NCBI GenBank assembly: GCA_026122225.1
Contig: JANEZZ010001497.1
Coordinates: 1,054,001 to 1,118,000, forward strand
DNA length: 64,000 nucleotides
From: Heloderma charlesbogerti
Lineage: Eukaryota > Chordata > Lepidosauria > Squamata > Helodermatidae
Reading direction: 5' to 3'
The number at the start of each line of letters is the position of its first letter. Position 1 is the first letter of the stretch. The notes under the pieces were generated by a model. The model had not been told where the DNA came from, did no database searches, and saw only the letters and a list, made by a program, of their open reading frames with translations. A program made the translations under genes and the position numbers. Below, in pieces: positions 9,900 to 36,942 of the stretch.

Positions 9900-10008
9900 C
9901 TTTTGCAGCACTGAACTCCTGTTGCACACAACCCAAGGAATACATCATTTTTGGAACATTTTGTTTGGCTGCATGTGCCTCCTCTAAATTTACAAAATGC
10001 TGCTGGAT
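9900..10008 (-). CDS. beta-defensin-like exon 2 (copy B)
   Basis: A 109-nt minus-strand exon encoding the six-cysteine core of a beta-defensin, a secreted cationic antimicrobial peptide family. Spacing is C-x6-C-x4-C-x9-C-x5-CC, with a GG pair before the second cysteine and no stop codon. The acceptor is a pyrimidine-rich tract ending CCAGAG. The donor is AAAAG|GTGAGC, so the final residues lie in a third exon I cannot locate. The two bases before the first full codon fit a phase-1 junction. It is a close paralogue of the exons at 13573 and 23687 but differs at many loop residues. No signal-peptide exon was identified upstream, so expression is unproven. Crotamine-type reptile toxins belong to the same fold family; nothing here shows a toxin role. 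Confidence 0.85.
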
Positions 10009-10029
10009 CTCTGGAGAAACAGAAATACA

Positions 10030-10270
10030 CAAAGTGAAATGCATCCCAGCAAGCCAAGAAATTAAAGCTTAAAGGTCACTAGACCAGAGTGGAAGTCTAG
10101 TACACAGGTGAAGAGCTGGAAGAGCTGGAGCTTGGAGAATCCCATGAATTAAAATTAAAAACTGAACTGAACTTCTATTTCTTCCAGAAAAATAATGTGA
10201 TCAGCATATCAAATTTTCTTCATTTATTTTCATTCCATTAAGCTACATTCTTAAGGATGCATTTAGAGGT
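10030..10270. other. defensin flank, no exon recognised
   Basis: Presumed intron 1 of copy B. It contains AAAGGTCACTAGACCA, shared with 13745-13760 beside copy A, and near its end an inverted match to 360-400. I looked for an ATG-led hydrophobic exon on the minus strand and did not see one. Confidence 0.5.
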
Positions 10271-10272
10271 AT

Positions 10273-10440
10273 AGAATCATAGTGGTTAGAAGGGGCCTAC
10301 AAGACCATCGAGTCCAACCTCCTGCTCAGGGCAGGAAGCCGGATTCCCAGGCAGTCTCCCATCCAAGTAATAACCAGGGCTGACCCTGCTTAGCTTCTGA
10401 GATCAGACGATATCAGAGGAGACCTGGGCAGCCCTCCCTT
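10273..10440 (-). mobile_element. 5S rRNA-derived SINE with CR1-type tail
   Basis: On the minus strand, 10430-10325 matches the internal part of 5S rRNA: CGTCTGATCTCAGAAGCTAA, GCAGGGTC, and TTGGATGGGAGACTGCCTGG. The A-box/intermediate-element/C-box promoter region of 5S genes is therefore recognisable. It runs directly into GGTTGGACTCGATGGTCTT and the CTATGATTCTA tail of CR1. A 5S-derived head with a LINE-derived tail is the SINE3 layout. It is not a 5S gene: the 5' part is missing or diverged and the 3' end is replaced. Confidence 0.7.
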
Positions 10441-10611
10441 TCTATGATTGAAATCACTTCTGTCTGAATAATGTTAATTCTTATCACGATAAATGAATAA
10501 GATACTCCCATACCTATATAGCCCCTAAACTAGGGATGCACAATAAGTTAGGTCTTCAAAACATGTGAACAAGTCCCATTTACAACACCAAACACAAACA
10601 TGAGCAGGAGA

Positions 10612-10947
10612 TAGGGATGGTGGAGAATTTCTGCCATGGATTTCCGGCCACAGACAGCCTGGTGCGGACTTAAATGGCATCCAAGCATGGCAAATCATGG
10701 TCCAAGGACGCAAATCACGGTCCAAGGATGGCAATGGCAGTGGCAGCAGCCCTGCCACGGCTGGCCAGGAGACCAGCCGCCGGAGCCGCTGGTGCCTCCG
10801 CTGCATCCGCCCCAGGTAAGTGCCATCCTGGGGGGATTCTGTGGGGGGGCAGGGGGGCAGGAGGCGGCTCTGCCATGGATTCCGGGGGGGCTGAACTACA
10901 GAATCCGGCCTCACTGGAATCCGTGGCGGAATTCTCCGCCATCCCTT
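10612..10947 (+). mobile_element. hAT-like element, core-less variant
   Basis: TAGGGATGG...CCATCCCT, with GAGAATTTC and GGAATTCTCC subterminal inverted repeats and the outward donor CCAGGTAAGT near 10812. It lacks the GATAGGCTACGT hairpins and carries instead a short series of ATGGCA/TCCAAG repeats. No 8-bp duplication was found, so one boundary may be altered. A further TAGGGATG start at 10531 may be an older element it landed in. Confidence 0.65.
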
Positions 10948-10955
10948 GTCATCAT

Positions 10956-11506
10956 TAGGGGTGCACGAAAGCCACTTACCTGGTCTCACAGCTTGCTTCG
11001 CGGTCGGGGGGAGGCACTTCGCTGCTCCCCCGAGGTTCAGGCCGGGGGGGGGAGGCTTCCCTCCTCGCCCGGCCGAAATTCAGGCCAGGGAGGAGGCGCC
11101 TCGCCTCGCCCAGCTGCGAAATAAAAAGTTTAAAAAAAACCACCCCCATGATAGGCTACGTGACGATTTACATAGCCTATCACAGCTAGATCTGCAAAGT
11201 CAGCCATGATAGGCTACGTTAATCATCACGTAGCCTATCACGGGGGCATTTTTTTTTTTTTTACTTTTATTGGAATGGCGGCGGTGGCAGCCGGTCGAAA
11301 GACCAGCTGCCGCCTCTGCCCCTGTCGAAGACCTTCCGAACCGCCGCCGGGACCCGCCACCGGGAGGGACATTCGGGAAAGGTAAGTCCCATCCAGGGGG
11401 GTGCAGGGTGTGTGTGGAGAATTTCTCCCCGAAACTACTTCGGGGGGCCGAATACATTGGCACTCGGCCCCCCAAAGTTTCGGGGAGAAATTCTCCCCCA
11501 TCCCTA
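10956..11506 (-). mobile_element. hAT-like element, family A, internal deletion
   Basis: TAGGGGTG...CATCCCTA with the perfect duplication GTCATCAT at 10948-10955 and 11507-11514. Both outer arms are intact, but only one pair of GATAGGCTACGT hairpins remains. The ATGGCGGCTCC and TAGTCTACG hairpins are gone. It sits directly beside the 10612 element. Confidence 0.9.
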
Positions 11507-11514
11507 GTCATCAT

Positions 11515-12860
11515 ACAGGGCGACCAAGGCTGTTTCTGTGCCAAAAGCTGGCCTGAACCCCAACTGAAATGGTGTAATGGCAGTAGTGGCATAATTCACT
11601 TCTCACAGAGTTATGGTGTCCAAAGAGATGGAGGCTGACACTTCTCTGCTTGATGCTTGCCAGTCCCAGCTAATTAAATCCCTTCAGTTACTAAGACCAG
11701 CAGGAGAGGCCCTTCGGAAGATACTCTCACTTAAAGAACCCTGTTCATCAGGCACATGGGAAAAGGGCTTTCTCCGGTGTTGCTCTGAAATTCTGGAACA
11801 CTAGGGATGGCAGAGAATTTCTCCACGAATCTCTGGGAGGCCGAATGCCAACGCATTCGGCCCCCCGAAATTGGTGGGGAAATTCTCCGCCACCCCCCTC
11901 AGGGATGGGACTTACCTCTGTCGAATGTCCCCCTTGGCGGCGCATCCTGGCGGCGTTTCGGCGGCGTTTCGGCAGGGGCAGGGGCGATGGCCGGTCTTCC
12001 GACCGGCTGCCGCCGCCACCATTTCCCAGTAAAATAAAACAAAAAACAAAAAAAGTGATAGGCTACGTAACGATTTACGTAGCCTATCACGGCTAGATTT
12101 TCAAAGTCAGATTTACGTAGACTATGGCGAAAATAAGGGCAACGCAAATAGCCCTTAAGCGTTGCCCTTATTTTCACTGTAGTCTACGTAAATCTTTACG
12201 TAGACTACCCGTGCCCAAATAAGGAACGCAAATGGCGGCACCCATGGCCGCCGCCATTTGCGTACGTGCTTTTTTTTTTTTTTTCCAAAGTCACGCGTGA
12301 TAGGCTACATAAAGATTTACGTAGCCTATCACGGCTGACTTTTAAAATCTAGCTGTGATAGGCTACATAAATCGTTATGTAGCCTATCATGTGTGTTTTT
12401 TTTTACAATTTACTTTTTTATTTCACGGCCGGGGAGACGGGGCGCTCCCCCCCGGCCAGAATTTCGGTGGGGAGGGATGGGGTGCCTCCCCCCCGGCCTG
12501 AACTTCGGCCAGGAGGGGCGGGGCGCCTCCTCCCCCACCAAGAATTTCGGGGGAAGAACCAGAGCACCTCCCCCCCACACCGAAAACAGCTGCGGGGCCA
12601 GGTAAGGGACTTTCGTCCATCCTTGGAACACACTCCCTCTGGAGTTATGACCAGTCCCCATTATCTCTGCATTCAGGAAGACTCGTCTTTTTGATTTTGC
12701 GTTTCCAATTGTTGTCATGGTTTTTAATTTTTTGTTTTTGTGTTTTACTATGTATTTATTTGTTTATGATTTTTGTTTTCTGTCTATATATATATGTTGG
12801 GGAAAGTACCTCAGTTGCTTCCACAATGGCAGCATTCAAGTGCAATAAATAAATAAGTAA
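11515..12860 (+). mobile_element. degenerate L2-type LINE, split by a hAT element
   Basis: Includes GCGACCAAGGCTGTTTCTGT, found also in the L2 copy near 35860, then the GGAACACACTCCCTCTGGAG segment shared with 900 and 22491, and an AATAAATAAATAAG tail. The element at 11802-12623 interrupts it. No intact frame. Confidence 0.6.
11802..12623 (+). mobile_element. hAT-like palindromic element, family A
   Basis: TAGGGATG...CATCCT with the perfect duplication TGGAACAC at 11794-11801 and 12624-12631. The left half of the core has lost one GATAGGCTACGT hairpin and the ATGGCGGC hairpin, whereas the right half is complete. The asymmetric deletion makes the large palindrome one-sided. Confidence 0.9.
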
Positions 12861-12867
12861 ATCAGTA

Positions 12868-13327
12868 AGCAAGGGCGCAATCCTATCGGGATAGGCGGTC
12901 GCCTCCAAACTTGGAGACGACCACCTATGCAATGCAGGGCAGGAGAAGCACAGAGGGGATCATCTCCCCTCTGCTTCAGCTGCCCTGCATTTATGGCTAG
13001 ACAGCCAATTTCGGCTGTCTAGCTGTGGGACCGCAGAGTGTGGGAAGTGGCAGCAGGATGACACATAGGATGTGTCGTGCCGGCATTTCTGACTTCCCCG
13101 CCCCAGCACGCCCCCAGGAATGCCCTGTTTCTGCCACTCTGCGCTCCTCTTCTGAGCGTGGAGTGTGGGGCCATTCCATGCTGCCTATGAAGCAACACAG
13201 GAAGGGGTGGAGGTCTGTTCTCCGGGAACTGACCTCGGAATGCGGGTTCAGAAGACGGATCCCAGGAACCAACCTATCCTATGGCTGTCTAGGCACTGAC
13301 TGTCTAGGCCACAGAATTGCACCCTAA
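12868..13327. mobile_element. Harbinger-like MITE
   Basis: Starts GGGCGCAATCCTATCGGGATAGG and ends AGAATTGCACCCTAA, flanked by CAA/TAA triplets. The interior resembles 55059-55495 (GGCACACCCCCAGGAATGCCC-like and GGATCATCTCCCCTCTGC segments). There is no ORF of interest. Confidence 0.65.
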
Positions 13328-13572
13328 GTGATCCAAATCAATTAGATCAAGCTAACGTAATTCCCAGCATACTAGCTTATGGAAGGTGTCTTTTTCAGCT
13401 GAACTCATTCCCTTCCCCTATTATTAATTTCCTATAAGTATGCTTGTTATATGCACTTGTTTTGTCTATTTACAACATATCATTCATAGGCCCCTACTTA
13501 AGACATGTAAACATCTGTAACATTGTTGTTGTTGTTGTTATGCATATGAACTAGTTAAGCTTTGGGGCTCAC

Positions 13573-13681
13573 CTTTTGCAGCATTGAAGTCCTGTTGCAC
13601 ACTCTCCAAGGGATATGTCAATTTCAGTACATCCTGCTAGGGTACATTCGCCTCCTTGAAATTTACAGTATGCTACTGGAT
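13573..13681 (-). CDS. beta-defensin-like exon 2 (copy A)
   Basis: Minus-strand 109-nt exon with an open frame and the cysteine pattern C-x6-C-x4-C-x9-C-x5-CC. It has the same GTGAGC donor and CCAGAG acceptor as copies B and C. Compared with them the core has the same length and cysteines, but the loop between cysteines 3 and 4 is acidic. Flanking DNA (13365-13560 and 13682-13760) aligns with 9725-9890 and 10009-10090, showing duplication of the whole unit. The signal-peptide exon and terminal exon were not found, so completeness is unknown. Confidence 0.85.
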
Positions 13682-13689
13682 CTCTGGAG

Positions 13690-14310
13690 AAACAGGGAGT
13701 TCAGAAAGTGAAATGCATGCCCCAAAATTTAAACTTATAAGTTATAGGTCACTAGACCACTAGAGACAGCAGGCTCCTTTTGGAATTCCTCAGCTAGGCT
13801 CACACATGTATGTTCTTCACTTGATGACTGTAATGTCAAGTGACATCTTTTATATCTGAATGGGCCCTTTCAGTTATTCAATTATCAAAAAAAAAAAAAA
13901 ATCTGCCTGGTTTACAAACCAGAGTTAAGGCTATCTTATGTTGGTCCAAACTCCAAAACCCCAGGAAATTAGAAGCTAATGCTGATGCCTTAATTGATGT
14001 GCACTGTGATCGGTGATGATGCTGTTCAGTGTCACATATTGTGCATTTTTACAATTTACCTTCCATGCACCCACACTTTACCTTGGTTTTTCATTCCCAA
14101 ATCCAGATGGGGAGGGTGGAGTGCCTGGAACTAGCAAAGATGTCCCTCATTGTCCTGTTGTTGTACTGCCTTATGAAGCATCTGAGACTTAATCTATTGC
14201 TAGAGGAATCCTCCTGTAAGTTGACCCTTGCCAGTTTGTTGTTTACATCACTAGTTTGCAGGGTGGATTGAACAGTGATGGGGATCCCTTTTAATACAAA
14301 ATTTATATAC
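13690..14310. other. unassigned single-copy-like sequence
   Basis: Presumed upstream/intron DNA of defensin copy A. It holds an A13-14 tract near 13890. I see no hydrophobic minus-strand exon, repeat boundary or RNA gene. Confidence 0.5.
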
Positions 14311-14316
14311 CGCTCC

Positions 14317-15274
14317 TAGGGATGGGGGAGAATTTCTCCCTGAAACTTTGGGGGGCCAAGTGCCAACGCATTCGGCCCCCCGAAATCGGCGGTGAAATTC
14401 TCTGCCCCCTGCCCCCCTCCTGGGATGGGACTTACCTTTGATGAATGTCCCTCCTGCCGGCGGGTTCCGGCGGCAGTTCGACGGGTTTTCGTCAGGGGTG
14501 GGGGCGGCAGCTGGTCTTTTGACTGGCTGCCGCTGCCGCCATTACAATTGAAGTAAAAAAACCCCAACAACCCTGTGATAGGCTACGTGATGATTAACGT
14601 AGCCTATCACAGCTAGATCTCCGAAGTCAGCCGTGATAGGCTACGTTAATCGTTACGTAGCCTATCACGGGTGACTTTGAAAAAAAAAAAAAGCGCGTAT
14701 GCAAATGCCGGGGCCCTATGGGCGCCACCATTTGCGTTCCTTATTTGGTCCCGGTAGTCTACGTAAAGATTTACGTAGACTATGGTGAAAATAAGGGCAA
14801 CGCAAATAGCGTTGCCTTTATTTTCACCATAGTCTACGTAAATCTTTACGTAGACTACAGGGACCAAATAAGGAACGCAAATGGTGGCGCCCTATGGGCG
14901 CCGCCATTTGCGTACGCACTTTTTTTTTTTCAAAGTCACCCGTGATAGGCTACGTGACGATTTGCGTAGCCTATTACAGCTGACTTTGGAAATCTAGCCA
15001 TGATAGGCTACGTAAATCGTTACGTAGCCTATCATGGGGGTGGTTTTTTGTTTTTGTTTTTACTTTTTTTTCTTGGCCGGGTAGATGGGGCGCTTCTACC
15101 TGACCTGAATTTTGCCTGTGAGGGATGGGGCGCCTCCCCCCTGGCCTGAATTTTGGCCAGGCGAGACGGGGCACCTCCCCCCCTCGCCTGAACTTCGGGG
15201 GGAGAACCGAAGTGCCTCCCCCCCCACCGCGAAGCAAGCTTCGAGGACAGGTAAGGGACTTTCGCCCATCCCTA
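14317..15274 (+). mobile_element. hAT-like palindromic element, family A, full core
   Basis: TAGGGATG...CATCCCTA with both arms and a complete mirrored core: GATAGGCTACGT hairpins, ATTTGCGT...ACGCAAAT ends around a GGCGCCC/GGGCGCC block, and the central GCAACGCAAATAGCGTTGCC. The flanking 8 bp (ACCGCTCC and AGTCCACT) do not match, so the TSD is lost or the copy is recombinant. Confidence 0.85.
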
Positions 15275-15387
15275 AGTCCACTCCACATCAGGAGATTTCG
15301 GAGCAGTAAACAACAAAGATAAATAATAAAACACCAGGTTTAAACTGTTAAAACATTACATAACATTACATAAACTGTTAAAACCGT

Positions 15388-15747
15388 TTGCGTCCCTGCA
15401 GTCAGCCGTGATAGGATACGTAAATGTTTATGTAGCCTATCACGGTGTTTTATTAAAATCTAGCCTTGATAGGCTACATAAATCTTTACATAGCCTATTA
15501 CGTTTGTTTGTTTGGTTTTTTTACTTGGAAATGGCGGCGGCGGCAGCCGGTCAGAAGACCGGCCGCCGCAGCCACCGCCGCCGCCGAACCACTGCTGAAC
15601 TGCCACCGGAGCCACCGCCGCCAGGGACATTCGAACAAGGTAAGTCCCATCCCGGGGGGGGGGGCGGGGGGGCAGACCGTTTCTCCACCCATTTCGGGAT
15701 TTCTCCACCAATTTCAAGATTTGTGGAGAAATTCTCTGACATCCCTA
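15388..15747 (+). mobile_element. hAT-like element, family A, 5'-truncated
   Basis: Lacks the left terminus and ends GACATCCCTA. It keeps two TAGGCTACRTAAA hairpins and an ATGGCGGCGGCGGCAGCC arm with donor CAAGGTAAGTCCC. The arm starts with an ATG-led GC-rich frame, but other copies have stops at the same place, so I do not call it coding. Confidence 0.8.
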
Positions 15748-15749
15748 GG

Positions 15750-16250
15750 AGTCCTAGATGCTTGTTTGTTATAGAATGGGTTGGGGTAGTCTAGATGAAA
15801 AAGTATTCATTCTGTACTGTACCACATTCAGATTTCAGCGTGCATGCATGCTGCATGACCTATCTGTGGTTACTTTGGATCTTGAGATACTTGGTGAGGA
15901 TAAAACAGTTTTGGTGGTACGGTGTTGCAGTTAAAAAGAAGTGACAAGTGGAAGGGTTCAGCCCCCTATTCCAGCACACTACTTGTTTGCTTCAAATTAC
16001 ATTCTCCCAACATCACTTCACACCAGAAAATATGTGTGGGTTCATGTCTGTGAGACTGATTGTCTAACTTCATATTCCATCTAAGCCCCTGTGAACACCT
16101 TTTAGAAGAGAAAAGGCACTAGTCTACAAATGTAATTTATTATAAATAATTAAGCAACCCATACCTGCTTGAAATAAACATATTCCCCACCCCATGCTGC
16201 CAAGATGCACATTTTCTTACTGCCTTTTAAAAATCCATGAAATTGGTATA
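15750..16250. other. unassigned AT-rich sequence
   Basis: No coding signature, repeat terminus or structural RNA was recognised. Includes ATATATATTTTT just before the next element, which serves as its target site. Confidence 0.5.
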
Positions 16251-16260
16251 TATATATTTT

Positions 16261-17232
16261 TAGGGATGGTGGAGAATTTCTCCCCGAAACTTCTGGGGGC
16301 CGAGCGCCAACATGTTCGGCCCCCCGAACAAGTTTCGGGGAGAAATCCTCCGCCCTCCCACCCCCCGCCCCCCCCCGGGACGGGACTTACCTTCCCTGAA
16401 TGTTCCTCCCGGCGGCGGGTCCGGCTGGCGGTTTGTCAGGTGTTCGAGTGGGGCGGGAGCGGCAGCCGGTCTTTCGACCGGCTGCTGCCGCCGCCATTGC
16501 AATAAAAGGAAAAAAAAAAAAAGTCCCCTGATAGGCTACGTGACGATTCACGTAGCCTATCATGGCTAGATTTGCAAAGTCAGCCATGATAGGCTACGTG
16601 AATCATCACGTAGCCTATCACGGGTGACTTAAAAAAAAAAAAAAAAGTGTGTACGGATAATGGCGGCCCCATAGGGAGCTGCCATTCCCGTTCCTTATTT
16701 GGTCACTGTAGTCTATGTAAACGTTTACGTAGACTACGGCGAAAATAAGGGCAACACTATTTGCGTTGCCCTTATTTGGTCACTGTAGTCTACGTAAACA
16801 TTTACGTAGACTACAGCAACAAAATAAGGAACGCGAATGGCAGCTCCCTATGGGGGCTGCCATTCGCGTATGCGCTTTGTTTTTTTTTTTAAGTCACCCG
16901 TGATAGGCTACGTGACGATTCACGTAGCCTATCACGGCTGACTTTGCAGATCTAGCCGTGATAGGCTACGTGAATCGTCACGTAGCCTATCAGGGGAAGT
17001 TTGTTTGTTTTTTTTTTACTTTCGCGTTCGCGGCCGGGCAAGGCGAGGCGCCTCCTCCCCGGCCTGAATTTCGGCCAGGCCAGGCGGGAAGCCTCCCCCC
17101 CGGCCTGAATTTCGGCTGGGCGAGGCAGGAAGCCTCCCCCCCCGGCCTGAACTTCGCGTGGGGAGCAGCGAAGCGCTCCCACCCAACGCGAACAAGCTGC
17201 GAGAAAAGGTAAGTGACTTTCGTCCACCCCTA
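16261..17232 (+). mobile_element. hAT-like palindromic element, family A, full core
   Basis: TAGGGATG...CACCCCTA with the perfect duplication TATATTTT at 16253-16260 and 17233-17240. At 972 bp this is the longest standard copy. The right outer arm has an extra GGCCTGAATTTCGGC hairpin repeat, appearing twice before GCCTGAACTTCGCG. Confidence 0.93.
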
Positions 17233-17334
17233 TATATTTTTCAAAACATGCTTTGACATTTTGTACCATACAAGCAGCAGCATCAGTCACAACGATGCTA
17301 GAAAATACAGCTACAAGCACCACACCCCAAACAT

Positions 17335-17830
17335 TATTTTTATTATGTATGTATTTACTTAAAACATTTGTATCCCGCCCTATATCATTAAGATCTCAGG
17401 GTGGCGTACAGATAAAATCAATTTAAACAGTATAAAACAAATGATTTAAACAGCTAAGAACAAATGAGCCAATACCAATTAAAACCTAAAACAATAAAAC
17501 AGTTAAAACAGTGTGCTACCTTAGGGAATGCATTTAGCCCTCAAAGGCTTTAGTAAAAAGCCATGTTTTTACTTGGCACCAAAATGAGACCAATGTCTGC
17601 ACCAATCGGGCCTCCAAAGGCAGGGCATTCTACAACTGGGGTGCCACAGCAGAGAAGGCCCTCTCCCATGTCCCACCATAGTGTATGTCTCATACTGGTG
17701 GGTTGCATAGGAGGGCCCATCCAACAGATCTCAGTCCTCAGGCAGGCATAGACAGGGATCATTAGCAACATTACTACTCTCATCCTGGCTGTAACAACAG
17801 AAACCCCCATGTCTCACTGTCAACTCACCC
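17335..17830 (-). mobile_element. L2-type LINE 3' region
   Basis: Reverse complement of an L2 3' end: a TATTTACTTAAAACATTTGT start, CCGCCCTATATCATTAAG, and 'aaccatgtttttact...aaggcagggcattcta' UTR-like text. Non-coding. About 17830-18080 has no assignment. Confidence 0.6.
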
Positions 17831-18139
17831 AGGAAGGTCATGAGATCAGCTTACAAAATAAAGGTGTTAGCCAACTCACTGGAGGATTCCTCTAGCAATA
17901 CAGTAAAGATCACATACTTCAAAAGGCAATACAGGACCAGGACAATGTGAAGCATTTTTTCTGGTCACAGGAACTCTATCATTCCCATAAGATCTGGACA
18001 CTACCCAAAAAGAAAGAAGCTGCACTAGAACCTCTGCCAATGGTGACCCCTACCCATGAGAAACTGTTCAGAATGTCTCCTCCCACTAGAGATATTTGGT
18101 GAAACTGCCCCCTCAATTTGTGTGCCCACAAATAGGGTG

Positions 18140-18687
18140 GAGAATTTCAAGAGGCCATTTGCATACAGCTCGATTTATTACCATTGAGCACGGTATCCTC
18201 CCGGATAAGCTGTCTAAGTTTGGTATGGGAGGCATTGCTTGGTGGTGGTTCTGCTCCTTCTTGGATCAGCATTTTCAGAAGGTGGTGCTGTGAAATTACT
18301 GCTCAATCACTTGACAAGTTTGGGGATTCCACAGGGTTTTTTCCTTTCTCCCATGCAGTTAAACATCTACATGAAATCACAGAGATCATGTGGAATTTGG
18401 GTCTCAGGTGTCACCAGTATGTGGATGACACCCAGATTTTTCTGTCATTGTCATCAGGAACAGGTAAGGTGTGATTGCCCTCAACCAGTGCATGGTGAGG
18501 TAATGGAGAGAGTCCAGAAGAGATGGAGGTATGGTTGATGAATGATGTTCAGCTTATTCTATATGGGGTTGCACTCCCCCTAAAAGATCAAGTTCACAGT
18601 TTGACGTGCTTATTGATCCAGCAGTGTCATTACATGTGCAAGCGACCTCTGCACCTCAAAGCTCCTTTTATTGCTTTTGGCTTAAAT
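18140..18687 (+). mobile_element. L2-type LINE reverse transcriptase fragment
   Basis: Broken translation with CHQYVDDTQIFL (the YADD-box equivalent), TGFFPFSHAV in place of GVPQGSVLSPM, and a later DQVHSLGVL-like segment. It continues beyond the hAT insertion at 19585-19760 with GGATAGAGATAGCTTGG, as in the L2 copy at 47140. Pseudogenic. Confidence 0.75.
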
Positions 18688-19576
18688 TAGGGATGGCGGA
18701 GAATTTCTCCCCGAAACTTCGGGGGGCCGAGCGCCAACGCGTTCGCCCCCCCGAACAAGTTTCGGTGAGAAATCCTCCGCCCCCCCGCCCCCCGCACCCC
18801 CCCGGGACGGGACTTACCTTCCCTGAATGTCCCTCCCGGCGGCGGGTCCAGCTGGCGGTTCGTCCGGTGTTCGAGTGGGGCGGGAGCGGCAGCCGGTCTT
18901 TCGACCGGCTGCCGCCCCCGCCATTGCAATGAAAGAAAAAAACAACAACACGTCCCCTGATAGGCTACGTGACGATTCACGTAGCCTATCACGGCTAGAT
19001 TTGCCAAGTCAGCTGTGATAGGCTACGTGAATCGTCACGTAGCCTATCCCGGGTGACTTAAAAAAAAAAAAAAAAGTGTGTACGGATAATGGCGGCCCCC
19101 ATAGGGAGCCGCCATTCCCGTTCCTTATTTGGTGGCTGTCGTCTACGTAAATCTTTACGTAGACTACGGCGAAAATAAGGGCAACGCTATTTGCGTTGCC
19201 CTTATTTTCGCCGTAGTCTACGTAAAGATTTACGTAGACAACAGCCACTAAATAAGGAACGCGAATGGCGGCTCCCTATGGGGGCCGCCATTCGCGTACG
19301 CACTTTTTTTTTTAAAGTCACCCGGGATAGGCTACATGACGATTCACGTAGCCTATCACGGCTGACTTTGCAGATCTAGCCGTGATAGGCTACGTGAATC
19401 GTCACGTAGCCTATCAGGGGGCGTTTTTTTTGTTTTTTTTTTACTTTCGCGTTCGCGGCCGGGAGAGGCGACGCGCCTCCTCCCCCCGGCCTGAACTTTG
19501 CGGGGGGAGCAGCGAAGCGCTCCCCCCCACCGCGAACGGCCTTCAACAACAGGTAAGCGACTTTCGTCCACCCCTA
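18688..19576 (+). mobile_element. hAT-like palindromic element, family A (best reference copy)
   Basis: TAGGGATG...CACCCCTA with the perfect duplication GCTTAAAT at 18680-18687 and 19577-19584. Hairpins in order: 18715-18775 (CCGAAAC..GTTTCGG); 18893-18920 (CGGCAGCCGGTC mirrored); 18959-18990 and 19017-19048 (GATAGGCTACGTGA...CACGTAGCCTATC); 19088-19115 (AATGGCGGC..GCCGCCATT); 19141-19165 (GTCTACGTAAATCTTTACG); and a central GGGCAACGC..GCGTTGCCC at 19179-19201. The series then repeats in mirror image to 19415. The whole core 18957-19417 is one inverted repeat centred near 19188. Outward donors: the complement of ACTTACCTT near 18815, and CAGGTAAGC near 19550. Confidence 0.95.
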
Positions 19577-23686: not shown

Positions 23687-23795
23687 CTTTTGCAGCATGG
23701 AAGTCCTACTGCACACTCCCCAAGGAATACATCGTGTTCAGCACATCTCGGTCGGGTGCATTTGCCTCCTTGAAATTCACAATGTGCTACGGGAT
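23687..23795 (-). CDS. beta-defensin-like exon 2 (copy C)
   Basis: Minus-strand 109-nt exon, open throughout, with C-x6-C-x4-C-x9-C-x5-CC. Donor AAAAG|GTGAGC and acceptor TTTCTCCAGAG are the same as in copies A and B. It is richer in Arg/Lys between cysteines 2 and 3 and acidic/His after cysteine 3. Intronic sequence on both sides aligns with the other copies. The signal-peptide exon should lie at higher coordinates, but I found none between 23.8 and 29.6 kb. The copy may therefore lack exon 1, or its exon 1 may be too diverged to recognise. Confidence 0.85.
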
Positions 23796-23839
23796 CTCTG
23801 GAGAAACAGAAAATTCAGAAAGTGAAATGCATGCTCATA

Positions 23840-27399: not shown

Positions 27400-27599
27400 G
27401 GTAAGGCAGGGCAGTGATGCAAGATACTATCCAATATGTCTTTCTTAACAGGAATTGCTGCACTGTGTTTGTCTATCTTGCTCTCCCCTCTTATTATTTT
27501 GTAGGTCTTGCAGTCTAAATCATATTTTATTGATCAATATGTAAAGCATGAAGTTAATCCACTTCTATGTTGGTCCAGTCAAATCCCAGGATGTTCTGC

Positions 27600-28013: not shown

Positions 28014-28363
28014 TGTTCTGCCACTCTGCATAGGCTTATAAATGACATGGAATGTCAATAAGCAACAAAACATGCATGCACAGACACCGGGAAGAGGCAC
28101 AGCTGCATTGTAATGGCACACACTATGCACGCACCACTTTATCTCATGCCACTCTGCAGTCCAACTGTTTCCTTTAAAAAGGCCTTCTGTGTAGTGAAGG
28201 ATATGGGTCATTCAATGCAGAAGGGTTTGGGGGAAGCAGTTTCTGCCCCAGTCCCTTAGGCCTCACCCAAGACTCCACCCACATTAGGTGTCCAAGTATG
28301 CCACAGGCACAAGTGCACAATTTATCTAATAACCTGCTCCAGCACAATTTCTTGGGTCCCACC

Positions 28364-29216
28364 TAGCGTTGGCGGAGAATTTCTCCCTGAAACTTCGGGG
28401 GGCCGAGCGCCAACGTGTTCGGCCCCCTGAACAAGTTTCAGGGAGAAATCCTCCGAACCCCCCCGCCCCCCGCACCCCCCCCGGGATGGGACTTACCTTC
28501 ACCGAATGTCCCTCCCGGCGGCGGGTCCGGCTGGCGGTTCGGCGGGTGTTTGAGCGGGGCGGGAGCGGCAGCCGGTCTTTCGACCGGCTGCCGCCGCCGC
28601 CATTGCAATAAAAGAAAAAAAAAAGCCCCCTGATAGGCTACGTAATGATTAACGTAGCCTATCACGGCTAGATTTGCAAAGTCAGCCGTGATAGGCTACG
28701 TCAATCGTCACGTAGCCTATCACGGGTGACTTAAAAAAAAAAAAAGTGTGTACGGATAATGGCGGCCCCCATAGGGAGCTGCCATTCCCATTCCTTATTT
28801 GGTCGCTGTAGTCTACGTAAACATTTACGTAGACTACAGCGACTAAATAAGGAACGCGAATGGCGGCTCCCTATGGGGGCCGCCATTAGCGTACGCGCTT
28901 TTTTTTTTTTTTTAAGTCACCCATGATAGGCTACGTGACGATTGACATAGCCTATCACGGCTGACTTTGCAGATCTAGCCATGATAGGCTACGTGAATCA
29001 TCACGTAGCCTATCAGGGGGCTTTTTTTTTTTAAAAAAAACCTTTCGCGTTCGCGGCCGGGCGAGGCAGGAAGCCTCCTCCCCAGCCTGAATTTCGGCCG
29101 GGGTGAGGCGGGAAGCCTCCCCCCCTGGCCTGAACTTCGCGGGGGGAGCAGCGAAGCGCCTCCCCCCCACCGAGAACGTCCTTCGAGGACAGGTAAGGGA
29201 CTTTCGTCCACCCCTA
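28364..29216 (+). mobile_element. hAT-like palindromic element, family A
   Basis: Starts with a mutated terminus (TAGCGTTGG) and ends CACCCCTA. Perfect duplication GTCCCACC at 28356-28363 and 29217-29224. The centre has a single TAGTCTACGTAAACATTTACG hairpin, the compact-core variant also seen at 30017 and 60770. The right end donor is ACAGGTAAGG. Confidence 0.92.
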
Positions 29217-29570
29217 GTCCCACCTGGAGAAATTTTCTGCATGCCTGTCTGGCATCTACCCACCTACTTTCCTGCAAACATGACATTAGCTCCCTCTCCG
29301 TTGTGCATCCTCTGGCAAGCAAAGACATGTTTTAATTCATTTGGCTTTGAAGATGATTTGTTTCCTGAAGTAGATTTTAACTGGTGGGTGCTGTTTAATA
29401 TGATTGTTTTAACTGCTTTTAATTAATTATTTTTTATTTTTTTATGTTATAATTATAATTCTGTATTTTAACTGCATTTAACTACTGTTATCTGCTTTGA
29501 ACACTATTTTTAGTAGAAAGGCATGGCATACATTTGATAAATAATTAATTACATTATTATTATCACTTAT
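29217..29570 (+). mobile_element. L2-type LINE 3' tail
   Basis: From ~29390: TTTTAACTGCTTTTAATTAA, TGTTATCTGCTTTGAACAC and TAAATAATTAATTAC, as in the L2 tail at 48580-48660. The portion before 29390 is unassigned and could hold the terminal exon of the neighbouring defensin gene. Confidence 0.5.
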
Positions 29571-29673
29571 CTGTGAAAAGCCAACAGTGGCATGTACATC
29601 AGTGTATGCACATTTTTAATTTTTGATTTCACATACAGAATTCTGTCCACCCAATGTCACCTGAAGTATTTAC

Positions 29674-29800
29674 CTTTTACAACAGGGAACACCCTCCTCA
29701 CACAATCCATAGAAAATATAATCTTCACCACAATAAGCTCTTGTGCAATGAGCACCAAAGTCTGTACACGTACTCTTCAATATATATTTTCTTGTGAGAC
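29674..29800 (-). CDS. beta-defensin exon 2 (copy E)
   Basis: 127-nt exon, 18 nt longer than copies A-C because of extra residues before the first cysteine. Open frame. The loop between cysteines 3 and 4 is acidic/aromatic. The donor GTAAAT differs from the GTGAGC of the other copies, supporting an older split. Confidence 0.85.
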
Positions 29801-31076
29801 CTGAACAAGAAAAAAGTATCAATGGACAGGGTGTTTGCCTTGAATCCACCTGTTTTTACTTGAAGTGAAACTTGCAGGCAAGTTTCAAGTTTTCTGGTGT
29901 GGCAAAACATCCCAGAGATTTTGAACACAGCAAAACATGTTTTAATTAGAGCAGTGCAGTATTTCAGAGTGTGTTTGAACAGCTTGACCAGAGAGCCACA
30001 TAAAATGTGAATACGATAGGGGTGTCAGAGAATTTCTCGCTGAAACTTCGGGGGGCCGAGTGCCAATGTATTCGACCCCCCGAAGTAGCTTCGGGGAGAA
30101 ATTCTCCGCCCCCCCGCCCCCCCCAGGATGGGACTTACCTTTCCCGAATGTCGCTCCCGGTGGCGGGTCGCAGCGGCGGTTTGGCAGGACTTCGACAGGG
30201 GCGGGGGTGGCAGCTGGTCTTTCGACTGGCTGCCGCCGCTGCCATTCCAAGAAAAGTAAAAAAAAAAAAATGCCCCCGTGATAGGCTACGTGACGATTAA
30301 CGTAGCCTATCACGGCTAGATTTGCAAAGTCAGCCATGATAGGCTACGTAAATCATCACGTAGCCTGTCACGGGTGACTTAAAAAAAAAAAAAAAAGCAC
30401 GTACGCAAATGGCGGCCCCCATAGGGAGCCGCCATTCGCGTTCCTTATTTGGTCGCTGTAGTCTACGTAAAGATTACGTAGACTACAGCGACCAAATAAG
30501 GAACGCGAATGGCGGCTCCCTATGGGGGCCGCCATTTGCGTACGCGTTTTTTTTTTTTTAAGTCACCCGTGATAGGCTATGTGACGATTAACATAGCCTA
30601 TCACGGCTGACTTTGCAGATCTAGCCGTCATAGGCTATGTAAATCGTCACGTAGCCTATCACGGGGGCGTTTTTGTTTTTTGTTTTTACTTTTTATTTCG
30701 TGGCCAGGCAAGGCGAGGCGCCTCCTGAATTTCGGCCAGGCGAGGCAAGGCGCCTCCCCCCCTGGCCTGAATTTTGGGGGGAGAAGCGAAGCGCCTCCCC
30801 CCCACCGTGAAGCAACCTGCGAGATGAGGTAAGTGACTTTCGAGCACTCCTAGAATATGAGACTGTTGGTTTAGCTCAGCCTTTCCCAGACTGGTGTCTT
30901 CAAGTTGTTTTGTCCCATAACTCCCAGCATGCCCAGCCTGCTGTGAAAAGTGGCCAGAAGTCTATTCTCTACTTTTCATCAGTATTCCTTTTAAATTGTC
31001 TCTTGAAATAGATCATACCTGGACCTATCAGGAGTGCCAGGAAGAGAACTGTAGAAAGAAGGCCAAAGAATTTCAT
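29674..31076 (-). CDS. beta-defensin-like gene (copy E), exons 1 and 2
   Basis: The best-supported host gene. Exon 1 (31076-31019) begins MKFF and encodes 19 residues of a typical secretory signal peptide with a leucine-rich core. It ends in one base of a split codon at CCAG|GTATGA. Exon 2 (29800-29674) resumes in phase after TTCAG and encodes a Lys/Arg-rich stretch, then C-x6-C-x4-C-x9-C-x5-CC and AAAAG|GTAAAT. Splicing gives a Gly codon across the junction. A terminal exon with the last residues is expected below 29674 but was not identified. Intron 1 (29801-31018) holds the hAT element 30017-30852. The predicted product is a secreted antimicrobial-type peptide. Crotamine-like paralogues in snakes have this same exon layout, but function here is not shown. 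Confidence 0.85.
30017..30852 (+). mobile_element. hAT-like palindromic element, family A, in a defensin intron
   Basis: TAGGGGTG...CACTCCTA with flanks GAATACGA (30009-30016) and GAATATGA (30853-30860), 7 of 8 matching. Compact single-centre core. On the gene's strand (minus), the outward donor of the left arm (complement of ACTTACC near 30135) points in the direction of transcription, ~340 bp before exon 2. Confidence 0.9.
31019..31076 (-). CDS. beta-defensin exon 1, signal peptide (copy E)
   Basis: 58 coding bases. An ATG in context TTGCCATGA, then a hydrophobic leader with residues LLSTVLFLALLIG, and a GTATGA donor. The upstream minus-strand sequence (31077-31150) is presumably 5' UTR. 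I see no TATA box. Confidence 0.82.
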
Positions 31077-31149
31077 GGCAAAAGTTGACTGATATCTCAA
31101 TGTCACTGAAAGAGAGAGAAGATACCAAGAAAGCAACTCAGAACTTAAG

Positions 31150-31290
31150 AAAGACTCCAGTTCTTGACAGATTCAGTCCTGTGTATACTTACTTGGGAGT
31201 AAATCTGATTGAACTCTATGGGACCTTTGTCTGAGTAGACTTATCTAGATTGTGTTATTACTATATTAAAACAAGAGCTGTAGATATACC
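31150..31290. repeat. reptile interspersed palindrome fragment
   Basis: CTTACTTGGGAGTAAATCTGATTGAACTCTATGGGAC followed by GAGTAGAC is the same motif found in both arms of the foldback 38329-40001 (ACTCAGAAGTAAGTCTTACT). It is an old fragment. Confidence 0.45.
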
Positions 31291-31588
31291 ATCCTGAGCC
31301 CCCGAAATTGCTGCTTTGCCCAACTTGTTGAGGAACACATTTCATCCTCCCAACCCAAAGGCTTTCATTTCATGGGATTGGGGCCCAAAATGGTTTGCAC
31401 CATTTTCGGGTGGAGAGGCACCCTGTGAAGGGAGGATACTGGCAGTAGCCAAAGCCAGCAACGTCCAAGCTGTTCAAAGGAAGGAAAACTGGAGAGTGCG
31501 TTGCAGCCGCATAACACCGTAAGCTTCACCTCATCATTAAAATGACTTGGAAGGTTTCAGAAACGTACACCCTGAAAATCACCAAAGG

Positions 31589-32647
31589 TAGGGATGTGTG
31601 ACACTGGGGATTCCATTCTGTTTATGCCCAATGGAACTTCACAGTGTTTCCATTCCAATTAGTGGTGAGCACTGCGGCAGATATTCTTTTTCAATTCTGG
31701 AAATGTTTTACGCTTTTTTGTTCAGGTCCCATGATATGCGCAAGTGGTGATTTGTGCAAATTAGATCTCTCTTTTTTCTGGGTCTTTCAGTTTGCTCAAA
31801 CTGGGCTTTTTTATTGTTTTTATCGGCAGTCTTGTGCACAAGCACATTATTGCACTTGTGCCTGTCCATCATGTAGCCCCACAGAGGCGTATTCCCTTCT
31901 TGTAAATATCTTGGTCAGTTTCATCCTCTCCACATACTACTTCATTTAGCCCAGCAGAGCTATATTCTGTACTTATCAAAGAACTGGTCAATTTCACCCT
32001 CCACTTTGGTGATTCCCAAACCTGGGGGGGGCGAAGTTCCAAAGGGGAGGATGAAATTGACAAGTTGTTTGATAAGTATGGACTATGGCTATGCTGAAGA
32101 GAAAACTCACTGGAAAAGACCCTGATGCTGGGAAAGATTGAAAGCAAAAGGAGGGGGGGATGACAGAGGATGAGATGGCTAGATAGCATCACCGATGCAA
32201 TGAATATGAACTTGAGCACATTCCAGGAGACAGTGGAGGACAGGAAGACCTGGCGTGCTACGGCCCATGGGGTCATGAAGAATCGGACATGACTTAACAA
32301 CTGAACAACAACAAATGGCTATGCTGGGTTAAATGAAATAGTGCACGGACAGGGTGAAACTGTCAACAATATTTGCAAGAGGGGAATATGCTTCTGAGGG
32401 GTTACATGGTGGAGAGGTAGACTAACTTATGATGGTGTGCACATGCACAAGATGGCTGATTTTTTTTTTAAAACAAGTTAAAAATATGGACCCATTTGTT
32501 GTTCAGTCATTAAGTCGTGTCCGACTCTTCGCATTTAAAGACCCCCCCTTTTATGGGGGGTGGGGGATGGAATGAAATCTGCCAGGGCCAAACCAGTAAA
32601 ATCCATTGCGATTTCACCCCTCCAAACAGAATTCTCATACATCCCTA
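31589..32647 (+). mobile_element. hAT-like foldback element with a nested Bov-B
   Basis: TAGGGATG...CATCCCTA with flanks ACCAAAGG and CCCAAAGC (6 of 8). The interior is an inverted repeat of ~200 bp arms (31850-32080 against 32040-32096 plus 32327-32430: GCCCAGCAGAGCTAT versus ATGGCTATGCTGGGT). A Bov-B fragment has landed in the right arm. Confidence 0.7.
32097..32314 (+). mobile_element. Bov-B 3' end fragment
   Basis: GAGAAAACTCACTGGAAAAG through AACAACTGAACAACAACA, flanked by the 12-bp duplication ATGGCTATGCTG (32085-32096, 32315-32326). A second, smaller Bov-B tail in the opposite orientation lies at ~32498-32536 (GTTGTTCAGTCATTAAGTCG). Confidence 0.88.
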
Positions 32648-32928
32648 CCCAAAGCAGGCACCCCTTTTCTCATCCATATAGCACCCATAGCAGCAGAATT
32701 AGTCAACAAATTCCAGATTGGAAATTAAAAGCCAGCTTCCTAGAACTTAGTGAGAGCATGCTGGGCTTCCTTTGGAACGAAGTTCGACAATGAGGGAAGC
32801 ACCACTGAAAGGGCCTTTGTTTTGTAACCGTCCATCTCAGTAGCTGGATGTGGTTAAAGCGGTTATAGGACTGCAGCTTGAAATTCTTTTCTAAATTCTA
32901 CTTAGAAAATAGAGGGATGTGTTTATTG

Positions 32929-33720
32929 TAGAACTGTGCTGAAAATTTTGATTCTTCCCATTTCATGTGCTGTGCAGGGTGAAGCAAACACTCTAGTGAA
33001 AGAAACTGGGGAGGTGAGAATTTTGAGTAACTTTCTTCTTGGGAAAGTGGACAGGATTTCCACTTACCTTTTTCAGCGTATGTAGTAGCTGAGAATCTTC
33101 TATTATTTTTTAACTTTACAAAACCCCCACCTCCCCTGCACTTGCAGCTGCCTAGGGTGCTTAGAGGGAACCTGCAGACCAACAGCTGTTTCTGAACTCC
33201 CAGGAGACCATGTCACCTCATCCTCTCCTATAGGCATGCAGGAAGGGCTCTGGAGCTGCAGAAGAACAAACAAGAACAAATGAGAACATAGAGCTTTAGA
33301 AAAATTATCTTCTTCCTTGCAGCAGCATAGAGCAAGCAAGATAACTTTTTTTCTACAGCTCCAAAAGTCCCATTTGTTTTTGTTTGCAACAGCTTGGGAC
33401 TCTTTGAAAAGATTCTGCAGCCTGGGAATTTTCCCTGAATGTCTGTAGGAGAGGCCATGTGGTCTCGTGGAAGTTCAGGAAGTGCTGCTGGGCTGGAGAA
33501 ATCTCTCTGTAAAGAGACTCGTCCTAGGGGGCATTTTTCAAGAAAAAAAAATGGAGAAGATTCTTCAGCCACCTCCCAAACTTAAAAAGGTATGTGTCCC
33601 CCTCCCCAAGGAGAAAATTCTGAAATTCCCCCCTCCCTGCAAAAAGAGGCAGAAAAAATAATAATGGAGGGAGAGAAAAAAAAATCCCCAAAAGAGGGGG
33701 CAGGATTCCGCACAGCACTA
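32929..33720. mobile_element. foldback element with 8-bp duplication, different termini
   Basis: TAGAACTGTGCTGAAAATTTTG...CGGATTCCGCACAGCACTA with the perfect duplication GTTTATTG at 32921-32928 and 33721-33728. Internal arms 33165-33245 and 33425-33490 are inverted (GGAGACCATGTCACC versus GGCCATGTGGTCTC). The 8-bp duplication and TA-rich ends fit hAT, but the termini are TAGWRCTGTGC and not TAGGGATG. Confidence 0.8.
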
Positions 33721-33728
33721 GTTTATTG

Positions 33729-34440
33729 CTTCATACTATGGACATAAACATCACCAATTTCTCATTGTTTGATTTAAGCTTGTCACTTCACTTTAGCAAA
33801 TGGATCTAGTTCTTGCTATAATTTCCAGAGGGGTAGCTGCATTAGGCTGTTGCCTGCAGCAAAACCAACAGTCATGTGTGGCATCTTAAAGACTTAACAC
33901 ATTTCATTCTGGATTCTTCCTTTACTCTTTATACTTGAACTTCACAGGGAGAATCCAGTGGAATTAATATCCAGAACAGTTCCTTCAGCTGTGGTTTGAA
34001 TCAAGATTTATTTATTTTTTATCACGCTACAGTGGTTAGTTCACTTATCAAGGCCATGATGTTGATCAACACTATTTGTGAATGGTCACAGTAATTATTT
34101 TACATATATCTTAACATGGTTGGTATTGTCTGCATTCATTCATCATCATCTTTTACTTACACACCATGTATAAGTACATGGGTGTGTATGTGTATGCATG
34201 CATGCACACGCACGCACGCACGCATGCGCGTGCACACACACACACACACACGCACACACCAGTTCAGGCTCTGGCACATGGAAATGTGCGCCATAATAAA
34301 TTTGTTAGCCTTGAAGATGTCACAAGTCCCTGTTGTGCTTGATATCAGGTTATGAAATTGTGCCCCCCCCTTTTCTAGCTAAAGAAAAAGAATTCCAACT
34401 GACAGAAACCTTAACATGTCACAAATGTAACCGACAAGAA
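33729..34440. other. unassigned sequence with an (AC)n tract
   Basis: No gene or repeat boundary. A CA/CACG dinucleotide microsatellite lies at about 34192-34259. Confidence 0.5.
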
Positions 34441-34445
34441 AAAAA

Positions 34446-36650
34446 CATTGTAACTGCTAAATATTTATTCATTTCATTTCTATGCCACCCAATAGCCAAA
34501 GCACTCTGGGTGGTTCACAAAAATCGAAACCACAAAGCACAGCATAAACAATATAAAATATGAACGCTTAAAAACCACAATATGACAGTAAAACCAGAAT
34601 AAAACCTAGTAGCAATGCAGAGATCTAAAATGCGTATATAAAACACCAGAGCTAAAAGACTAGGATGCTAAAATACTAAAATATTGGGAGAAAAAAAAGG
34701 TCTTCACCTGGCACCGGAAGGAGTACAAGATAGGTGCCACGAGACCGTCTGTAAGGAGCACATTCCACAGCCAGGGTGCCACAGCAGAAAAGGCTGTCTT
34801 CCTGGTAGCCCCCCACCTCACTTTCTTTGGCAGGGGCTTATGGAGAAGGACCCCTGAAAATGGTCTTAGGGTTCAGGCAGGCACATATGGGAGGAAGTGA
34901 ACCTTGCCCCCAAAACATTCAGGGCTTTGAATGTTAATACCAGCACTTTGAATTGGGGCCAGAAATGGACTGGCAGCCAATGCAGCTGGAAACATACTCG
35001 TGTAATGTGATCTTGTTGGCCAGTCCCTGTTAATAAATCTTGCTGCCCTATTCTGGACTAGCTTTCCAGAGCATTTTCAAAGGCAGCCCCATATATAACA
35101 TATTGCAGTAACCCAGATGAGAGGTCATAAGAGCATGGATCACTGTAGCTAGGCTACCTCTGTCCAGATAAGGGCTCCATTGGTATATCAACCCCTAAGC
35201 TGATAAAAAAAATGCTCCATGCCACTGAGTTCACCTGTGCCTCAAGTGCCAGTTCTGGATCCAAGAGTACCCCCAGACTATGAACCTGATCCTTTAGGGG
35301 GAGTGCAACCCCCTCCAGAAAAGGTTGAACATCATATAGCCAAGCAGACAAACCACCCACTAACAATACCTCCATCTAATCTGGATTAAGTTTCAGTGTA
35401 TTGGTCCTCATCCAGTCCATTACTGTGTCCAGGCACTGATTCAAAGCAGCCACTGCCTCACTTGGGGTTGATGAAAAGGAGAGGTAGAGCTGGGTGTCAT
35501 CCACATATTGATGGCACCTCAGCCCACACCTCTGGATAACCTCCCCCAGTGGTTTCATGTAGATGTTAAACAGCATGGGGGATAAAACAGATCCCTGTGG
35601 AACCCCATGGCACAATTGCCATGGCACAGAGCAATAATCCCCCAGCACCACCTTCTGGAATCGGCCATCCAATTAGGAGCGGAACCACTCCAGTGCGGTG
35701 CCTCCAACTCCCAACCCAGTCAAGCTATCCAGAAGGATACCATGGATGATGGTATCGAAAGCCACTGAGACATCCAGGAAAGTTGCTGAGAAGTCCAGGA
35801 AAATCAATAGAATCGCACTCCCCCTGTCCCTCTTCTGGCAAAAGTCATCCCAAAGGGTGACCAAGGCAGTTTCTGTTCCAAAACTAGGGATGTTGGAGAA
35901 TTCCACCATGGACTCCAGTGAGGCCAGATTCTTTAGAATCTGCCCCCCCCGAGTCTGTGGCAGAATGGACTACCCCCCCCCTGAAATCCCTGCTGGAGTG
36001 GACCTACCTGGCAGCGGTGGTGGCTCCAGGGGTGGCTCCAGAGGCGGCTCCGAGTTGTCTTCTGGCCACAGCCGGGCCGCTACGCCAACCGCCATTTGCG
36101 TCCCTGCCAAGCCATGATAGGCTACGTAAGTATCTACATAGCCTACACAGCAAAAGACAGGGACGCAAATGCCGTAGTGGTCGCCATTTGTGTCCCTGCC
36201 TTTTGCCGTGATAGGCTACGTAGATACCTATCATGGCTTGGCAGGGATGTAAATGGAGGCTCCATGGAGTCGCCGCAGAGCGGAGCCAGCCAAGGAGGAT
36301 TCTGGGAGGAGGGGCAGAGTGCCCCCCCCCATGGATTCCCCTGAACGGAGCCAGGTAAGGGATTCATACATCCATATCCAAAACTAGGCTTGAAGCCCAA
36401 CCGGTTACATTCAAGAGTGCCTGGAGCTGTCCCGCAACCACCCGCTCAAGCACCTTGCCCAGGAAGAGCTGTTGGCCACCGGCCTATAGTTGTTAACGTC
36501 CTCTGGATCCAGGTTAGGCTTTCCAGGAGTGGCCTGATTACTGCCTCTTTTGAAGAGGCCGGCACTGCGCCCTATCTCAAGGAGGAATTTTCAACCTCTT
36601 GGACTCAGTCAGACATCCCCTCCTTATTTGATGTAATAACCCATGAAGGG
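34446..36650 (-). mobile_element. L2-clade LINE, partial, interrupted by a hAT element
   Basis: Minus-strand copy running from a reverse-transcriptase portion near 36600 to the 3' UTR at 34446. The translation near 35600-35500 shows GVPQGSVLSPMLFNIYMKPL and HQYVDDTQLYLSF (the YADD-type box). LKDQVHSLGVLLDPEL follows near 35280. Stops and frameshifts separate the pieces, so it is inactive. Confidence 0.88.
35885..36376 (+). mobile_element. hAT-like element, family A2 (short core)
   Basis: TAGGGATG...CATCCATA with the perfect duplication TCCAAAAC at 35877-35884 and 36377-36384, inside the L2. The core uses ATAGGCTACGTAAGTATCTAC hairpins separated by GGGACGCAAATG blocks. The right end donor is CCAGGTAAGG. 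Confidence 0.9.
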
Positions 36651-36848
36651 CAAGGGTCCAGCATGCAGGTGGTCGACCAGACTTGGCCAAGCACCTTGTC
36701 TGCATATAGAGTCACAAATCCTAGAAAAGAGGAAGGCCAGAAGAGACTAAGACTACTTACCTCCTTATCAAGTAACCAGGAAAATCTGTCTTCTGGTTTC
36801 AACTCAGTTCTTATAATGAGTTTTGTGTGTACATGCATGTTGTTGTAC

Positions 36849-36942
36849 TTTTGATCACAAAGATATTGTGTGCTCCTGCAAAGATACCAATCTTTCTGGA
36901 ACATTTTGTCCGCCTCAGCCTTCGGAATGGTCCAAATGTGCT
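36849..36942 (-). pseudogene. decayed beta-defensin exon 2
   Basis: On the minus strand, ACAAAATGTTCC and the following ~40 bases align to exon 2 of copy B around its third cysteine. The flanking parts (TTCCGAAGG, then ATCAAAAG at the donor) also align with small gaps. Only one cysteine codon of the six survives and the GT donor has become TA. I read it as a dead copy at the distal edge of the cluster; chance similarity cannot be excluded. Confidence 0.45.

What the first reader, a model, noticed from the sequence alone, without database searches (positions are those of the whole stretch)
9900..36942. Hidden minus-strand beta-defensin cluster inside repeat-dense DNA
Four short exons (9900-10008, 13573-13681, 23687-23795, 29674-29800) each translate without stops to the same cysteine framework C-x6-C-x4-C-x9-C-x5-CC, end in AAAAG followed by GTGAGC or GTAAAT, and begin after a pyrimidine-rich acceptor. 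Exon length (109 nt) is identical in three. Four independent hits with identical spacing and splice signals cannot be chance. Such exons are below normal ORF thresholds and lie among transposons, so automatic annotation may miss them.
Basis: partly seen in the sequence, partly recalled or inferred. Interest (0 to 1): 0.9.

Follow-up and report, generated by a model that had tools for sequence, protein, structure and literature searches.

The report
Multi-domain defensin gene in beaded lizard
The four hidden exons are real beta-defensin exons, but they most likely belong to one gene that strings several defensin domains together by repeating an exon of fixed reading phase, in a lizard genome that fits a beaded lizard, a genus whose venom protein helofensin is likewise a chain of defensin domains.

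Summary
In detail: four minus-strand exons with exact C-x6-C-x4-C-x9-C-x5-CC, against none in 600 simulated windows. They are beta-defensin domains, but probably not four genes. The three "109-nt" exons are 111 nt (tandem acceptor CAG|AG), phase 2 at both ends, joining in frame as CCK-R-D. Exon 29674-29800 (phase 1 to 2) is the Komodo VkBD40 ortholog. The one convincing signal-peptide exon found lies just upstream (31019-31076). A fifth domain exon lies 214 bases outside the window. Best model: one polydefensin gene of signal, "head" domain and four "extender" domains. On the plus strand of the same contig, 6 head exons each precede 2-3 extenders in fixed order; 5 of 6 units have four domains, the number reported for helofensin. 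All 22 extenders found have lengths divisible by three and a GT donor whose letters also hold an in-frame TGA. Assembly size best fits Heloderma charlesbogerti, where helofensin escaped gene prediction because of short exons. No RNA was available, so splicing is inferred; no helofensin sequence was compared.

The parts
31019..31076 (-). Signal-peptide exon: ATG to phase-1 donor, MKFFGLLSTVLFLALLIGP + G|GTATGA (58 nt)
   Evidence: Between 31.1 kb and -12.4 kb it is the only candidate with both a strong hydrophobic core and a good phase-1 donor (donor score 4.18); weaker candidates at 17955 (donor 2.99), 15630 and -2044 were judged chance. Prediction from sequence; no RNA.
29674..29800 (-). Head domain exon (127 nt, phase 1 to 2): beta-defensin domain LTRKYILKSTC...CCK; ortholog of Komodo VkBD40
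   Evidence: 67% identity over 42 aa, E 1.6e-18; 67.4% over 43 aa; donor score 5.02. Only copy in the genome search (the next matches, E 0.07 and 0.46, are two extenders of this same gene).
23687..23797 (-). Extender domain exon 1 (111 nt, phase 2-2) DPVAHC...CCK; VkBD39-like
   Evidence: (64% to VkBD39 third domain); donor score 6.74.
13573..13683 (-). Extender domain exon 2 (111 nt, phase 2-2) DPVAYC...CCK; VkBD39-like
   Evidence: (58% to VkBD39 second domain); donor score 6.74.
9900..10010 (-). Extender domain exon 3 (111 nt, phase 2-2) DPAAFC...CCK; VkBD39-like. Extender 4 lies outside the window at C1315:1053676-1053786 (window -324 to -214)
   Evidence: (56% to VkBD39 first and third domains); donor score 6.74. 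Extender 4.

Best explanation
The exons are parts of one minus-strand polydefensin gene. A signal exon (phase 1) joins a head domain exon (phase 1 to 2), which joins a row of extender domain exons of phase 2-2, four of them here, each coding one complete six-cysteine defensin domain plus a K-R-D linker. Because the extenders are symmetric and multiples of three, copies can be added or lost without breaking the frame; that is how domain number grows. Each extender also carries a built-in end: unspliced, its donor AG|GTGA reads as KR-stop, so the last exon of the row can close the protein. Shown by sequence: exons, phases, candidate signal exon, homology, order. Inferred: splicing, which exon is last, secretion, and function as a secreted defence (or oral-gland) protein of several linked domains. 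Whether the K-R linkers are cut is unknown.
For: One convincing signal exon for five domain exons. Phases fit along the chain, including the non-duplicate step from head (donor phase 2) to extender (acceptor phase 2). Of 22 extender exons on the contig, all have first-AG-to-donor length divisible by 3 (16 of 111, 5 of 114, 1 of 117), 22 keep GT, 21 keep the first AG, 17 keep the second AG; 4 keep the first and lack the second. Donor +1..+6 is 91% identical between the 19 copies aligned, pyrimidine tract 81%, exon 63%. On the other strand 6 head exons each precede 2-3 extenders in fixed order, 5 of 6 units with four domains. Komodo VkBD39 (three domains joined CCKRDP/CCKKDP) and VkBD40 are homologs in the same order; anole LzBD52/53/55 are reported to hold a VkBD40-type second exon and a VkBD39-type third exon.
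Against: No transcript was seen. Every extender donor also reads as an in-frame stop (22 of 22), so a one-domain reading of any exon cannot be excluded from sequence. Donor-like letters after the last cysteines also occur in defensin exons that look single-domain (L002 and L047, the latter a VkBD37 ortholog), so a donor there is not proof of splicing. The head donor GTAAAT is only fair (5.02). The introns would be 1.2, 5.9, 10.0, 3.6 and 10.1 kb. No separate terminal exon was identified. Poly(A) signals do not discriminate. The 54 bases after the donor are also 75% identical, so shared descent explains part of the conservation. The Komodo gene structures are themselves predictions 'subject to confirmation'. 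One extender on the other strand (854972) has lost its acceptor AG.
Confidence: 0.8

Rival explanations
1. Four or five separate one-domain beta-defensin genes, each ending at the KR-stop just after the sixth cysteine; the second AG of the acceptor (G|AT CC) would fit a phase-1 signal exon.
For: Unspliced reading gives CCKR-stop in all four window exons and in the fifth; with the second AG the frame fits a phase-1 signal exon.
Against: No further convincing signal exon between the extenders; 4 of 22 extenders keep the first AG but lack the second, so the second-AG reading fails for them; on the plus strand 17 extenders fall behind 6 heads in fixed order and an eighteenth, 854972, is an orphan.
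Confidence: 0.12
2. The window gene is itself a helofensin gene, that is, a venom-gland product of this lizard (compatible with the one-gene model).
For: Genome statistics fit H. charlesbogerti; helofensin is described as four tandem defensin domains and was missed there by gene prediction for its short exons.
Against: The window gene has five domain exons and a direct Komodo counterpart; the six-unit array, mostly of four domains, is the better candidate. No helofensin sequence was compared.
Confidence: 0.12
3. A decaying relic: domain exons still open among transposons but no longer spliced.
For: Long repeat-filled introns; one distant paralog has lost its acceptor.
Against: All five domain exons of the window gene are open with six cysteines and intact splice dinucleotides; dN is below dS in 6 of 6 pairs of its extenders (dN 0.19-0.36, dS 0.28-0.37) and in 13 of all 14 pairs computed, though such short exons give weak estimates.
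Confidence: 0.06

Closest known systems
Komodo dragon VkBD39 + VkBD40 (and VkBD43), PMC6716921
   Same: VkBD40 is 67% identical to the head exon; VkBD39 domains are 47-64% identical to the four extenders, with the same CCKRDP joint; same order beside VkBD37 and VkBD38.
   Different: In print they are two genes (three domains and one domain); here the head and four extenders look like one five-domain gene. The printed VkBD39 starts with D rather than a residue from a signal exon, so the Komodo pair may be one gene too (inference).
Anole LzBD52, LzBD53, LzBD55 (as described in PMC6716921)
   Same: Second exon VkBD40-type, third exon VkBD39-type: the head-extender order found here.
   Different: Two domains, against five here. 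Sequences not seen.
Heloderma helofensin (lethal toxin family)
   Same: Several tandem beta-defensin domains from one gene (PMC9138766, Introduction read; one passage of PMC8402328). The plus-strand units of head plus three extenders have the same number of domains.
   Different: The window gene has five domain exons; sequences not compared; expression unknown.
Avian AvBD11
   Same: Two defensin domains on separate exons of one gene.
   Different: Its two domains have different ancestors and cysteine spacings; here the extenders are duplicates of one exon.

Membership tests
Beta-defensin | Six cysteines ending in CC, spacing as in the family (C-x6-C-x4-C-x9-C-x5-CC here) | tested here: met
   4 of 4 window exons; also extender 4. 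[quoted passage not shown]
Beta-defensin | Sequence similarity to the Pfam Defensin_beta profile | tested here: inconclusive
   best family in 4 of 4 exons, E 0.0018-0.011, but 16.2-18.6 bits against a curated cut-off of 21. In the own genome 8 other exons exceed the cut-off, two on this contig (150 of 671 candidates scored).
Beta-defensin | Three-stranded defensin fold | tested here: inconclusive
Beta-defensin | Disulfides 1-5, 2-4, 3-6 | not testable with these tools
   No structure or peptide chemistry.
Beta-defensin | Signal-peptide exon followed by domain exon, within a defensin gene cluster | tested here: met
   predicted signal exon; neighbours, Komodo order.
VkBD39/VkBD40-type polydefensin | VkBD40-type exon followed by VkBD39-type exons in matching phase | tested here: met
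Helofensin | Four tandem defensin domains from one gene | tested here: inconclusive
   Window gene: five domain exons. Plus-strand array: 5 of 6 units have four.
Helofensin | Sequence identity to helofensin and presence in venom | not tested
   No helofensin sequence was fetched or typed; no expression data.

The most novel reading that the evidence does not exclude
Defensin domains in these lizards are a plug-in exon system. A head exon (phase 1 to 2) starts the chain, and symmetric 2-2 extenders lengthen it. Because a phase-2 donor of the form G|GTRA always reads as an in-frame stop, any extender can serve as an internal or as the last exon without a separate terminal exon. One gene could then make a nested set of 1- to 5-domain proteins by choice of splicing or polyadenylation, and the same grammar produced the four-domain venom helofensins by duplication of whole units.
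Probability: 0.25. Interest if true: 0.75.

Novelty: new variant of a known kind. Interest (0 to 1): 0.55.

Why it matters
Multi-domain defensins are rare in vertebrates, and why and how they arise is called an open question (PMC9138766, Introduction). The exon phases here give a simple, testable answer for lizards, put a probable immune gene and a helofensin-like array within about 0.54 Mb of one contig, and explain why gene prediction misses such genes.

Tried and rejected
Four independent genes: rejected as the main reading (signal exons, phases, array order). Other defensin exons in the window: the loose cysteine pattern found none beyond the four; tblastn with 34 of the Komodo domain sequences and 23 own-genome exons over 264 kb gave, in the window outside the four, only short or stop-broken matches with E of 0.005 or worse. 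A relative search in 5.8 billion predicted proteins with published VkBD39 found nothing (1 candidate, none at E 0.01). Poly(A) signals: not informative; the seven control exons vary as much. DNA search with the signal exon found only itself. A terminal exon after extender 4 was looked for by eye in 1.2 kb and not identified. CTSB (PF08127): one match, on C376, 31.9 bits against 32.7. TRAM2 was not tested (the accession I recalled is not in the library) and XPO1 (PF08389) did not complete. Order against my reading: the best match to Komodo VkBD36 (1178920, plus strand) lies beyond VkBD40, out of Komodo order, and 1017264, between the VkBD37 and VkBD38 matches, has no clear Komodo partner (38% to VkBD38) among the 34 compared. 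Signal exons of the plus-strand units were seen for one unit only; the DNA before the others was not fetched. Papers: nine searches of the PMC library and passages in PMC4280549, PMC5577576, PMC4078517 and PMC12961865. I met no description of this exon grammar in what I saw; the main helofensin paper (Fry 2010, seen only as a reference-list entry) was not among the 9 papers listed for 'helofensin' and was not read.

Full report

Where it is. The window is bases 1054001-1118000 of a 1.66 Mb contig (C1315) in an assembly of 2,302,168,690 bases and 3246 contigs. The published Heloderma charlesbogerti draft has 2,308,465,658 bases in 3551 contigs; Gila monster 2.56 Gb, Shinisaurus 2.00 Gb, Dopasia 1.78 Gb, Komodo 1.51 Gb. 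Together with close matches to Komodo defensins (77% to VkBD38, 67% to VkBD37 and VkBD40) this points to a beaded lizard; the species is inferred, not shown. That genome paper says helofensin was missed by gene prediction, probably for its short exons, and found once by alignment (section 'Venom genes' read).

One gene, not four. The acceptor of the three repeated exons is TTTCTCCAG|AG. With the first AG each exon is 111 nt and of phase 2 at both ends, so CCK-AG|A-GAT-CC joins as CCKRDP, the joint printed between the first two domains of Komodo VkBD39 (the second joint is CCKKDP). The fourth exon, 29674-29800, is of phase 1 to 2 and 67% identical to Komodo VkBD40. A signal-peptide exon ending in phase 1 lies 1.2 kb upstream (31019-31076). 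I found no other convincing one down to -12.4 kb, where the signal exon of the VkBD38 ortholog stands; candidates at 17955, 15630 and -2044 scored lower and were set aside. A fifth domain exon lies at -324 to -214. The order VkBD37 (962638), VkBD38 (1041058), VkBD39-type (1053676-1077797), VkBD40-type (1083674), all on the minus strand, repeats the Komodo numbering; VkBD36 does not fit it and one exon in between has no partner. The Komodo paper states that VkBD40 and VkBD39 are homologous to the second and third exons of single anole genes, which is the order the window shows.

The paralogous array. One search with an extender finds 20 matches, all on C1315: 4 of the window gene, 15 on the plus strand and one of another type (L047, dropped from the counts). 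Two further extenders came (read) and one (read), giving 22: 4 in the window gene and 18 on the plus strand. A head search finds 6 strong plus-strand matches, E 4e-28 to 3e-16, the remaining 9 above 0.4. Their order is head-A-C-D (546899, 553297, 560521, 568705), head-A-C-D (590373, 592823, 594715, 603229), head-B-C-D (618894, 622273, 625162, 628055), head-B-C (653164, 654649, 661761; no D found), head-B-C-D (718737, 723849, 727112, 730080), head-A-C-D (798753, 802122, 805969, 814574), and an orphan B at 854972 with a lost acceptor. The D at 814574 scored only E 0.52, but its sequence shows six cysteines and the same splice letters. Letters A-D are my labels by eye. Four of the 6 heads were read: each 136 nt, phase 1 to 2. 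A signal exon was seen before the third unit; the others were not fetched.

Splice grammar. Of 22 extenders, lengths are 111 (16), 114 (5) and 117 (1); GT and the in-frame TGA within the donor are kept in 22, the first AG in 21, the second AG in 17. The length variants change whole codons. In the 19 copies aligned, donor letters +1 to +6 and the pyrimidine tract are more alike (91% and 81%) than the exon (63%), but the 54 bases after the donor are also alike (75%), so recent duplication explains part of this. A phase-2 donor G|GTRA always reads as a stop; this follows from the code, is not special to this gene, and occurs after the last cysteines of some defensin exons taken as single-domain (L002, L047). 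It means that any extender could end the protein.

Selection. Of 14 pairs computed, 13 have dN below dS; between the four extenders of the window gene dN is 0.19-0.36 and dS 0.28-0.37. The exons are too short for a firm statement.

How it most likely works (inferred). A secreted chain of five small disulfide-rich domains, made in epithelium or glands, acting on microbes as other defensins do; the K-R-D linkers may be cut to release single domains, or the chain may act whole. The plus-strand array is the likelier source of helofensin because most of its units have four domains. No sequence comparison with helofensin was made.

Noticed in passing
52154-52211 (-): A second signal-peptide exon (MQMGWLFLAVLSGKFLLSS + G|GTAAGA, phase 1), 75% identical to the one before a plus-strand array unit, with no defensin domain exon found below it before 31 kb: an alternative first exon of the window gene, or a relic.
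   Followed up: partly
C1315:1132916-1133044 (-), L014, window +78.9 kb: A defensin exon with a likely signal exon at 1143875 (L015) and a phase-2 donor AGAAG|GTAAGT but no extender seen between it and the window gene; in phase it could join the window extenders.
   Followed up: partly
10326-10440 (-): 5S rRNA-like stretch, 48.6 bits, close to exon 9900; possibly a 5S-derived SINE (the SINE idea is a guess).
   Followed up: no
throughout the window, e.g. 30280-30680: Abundant inverted-repeat element with TAGCCTATCACGG / GATAGGCTACGT; 41 and 39 matches of GATAGGCTACGT on the two strands.
   Followed up: no
57836-59779 (-), 4327-5316 (-), 2026-2541 (-): LINE pieces: a 647-aa open frame with reverse transcriptase, an endonuclease frame and another RT fragment.
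   Followed up: partly
C376 (other contig): Six further defensin exons over the Pfam cut-off, some very like Komodo VkBD4 and VkBD5 by eye, and the CTSB propeptide match 83 kb from the nearest.
   Followed up: partly
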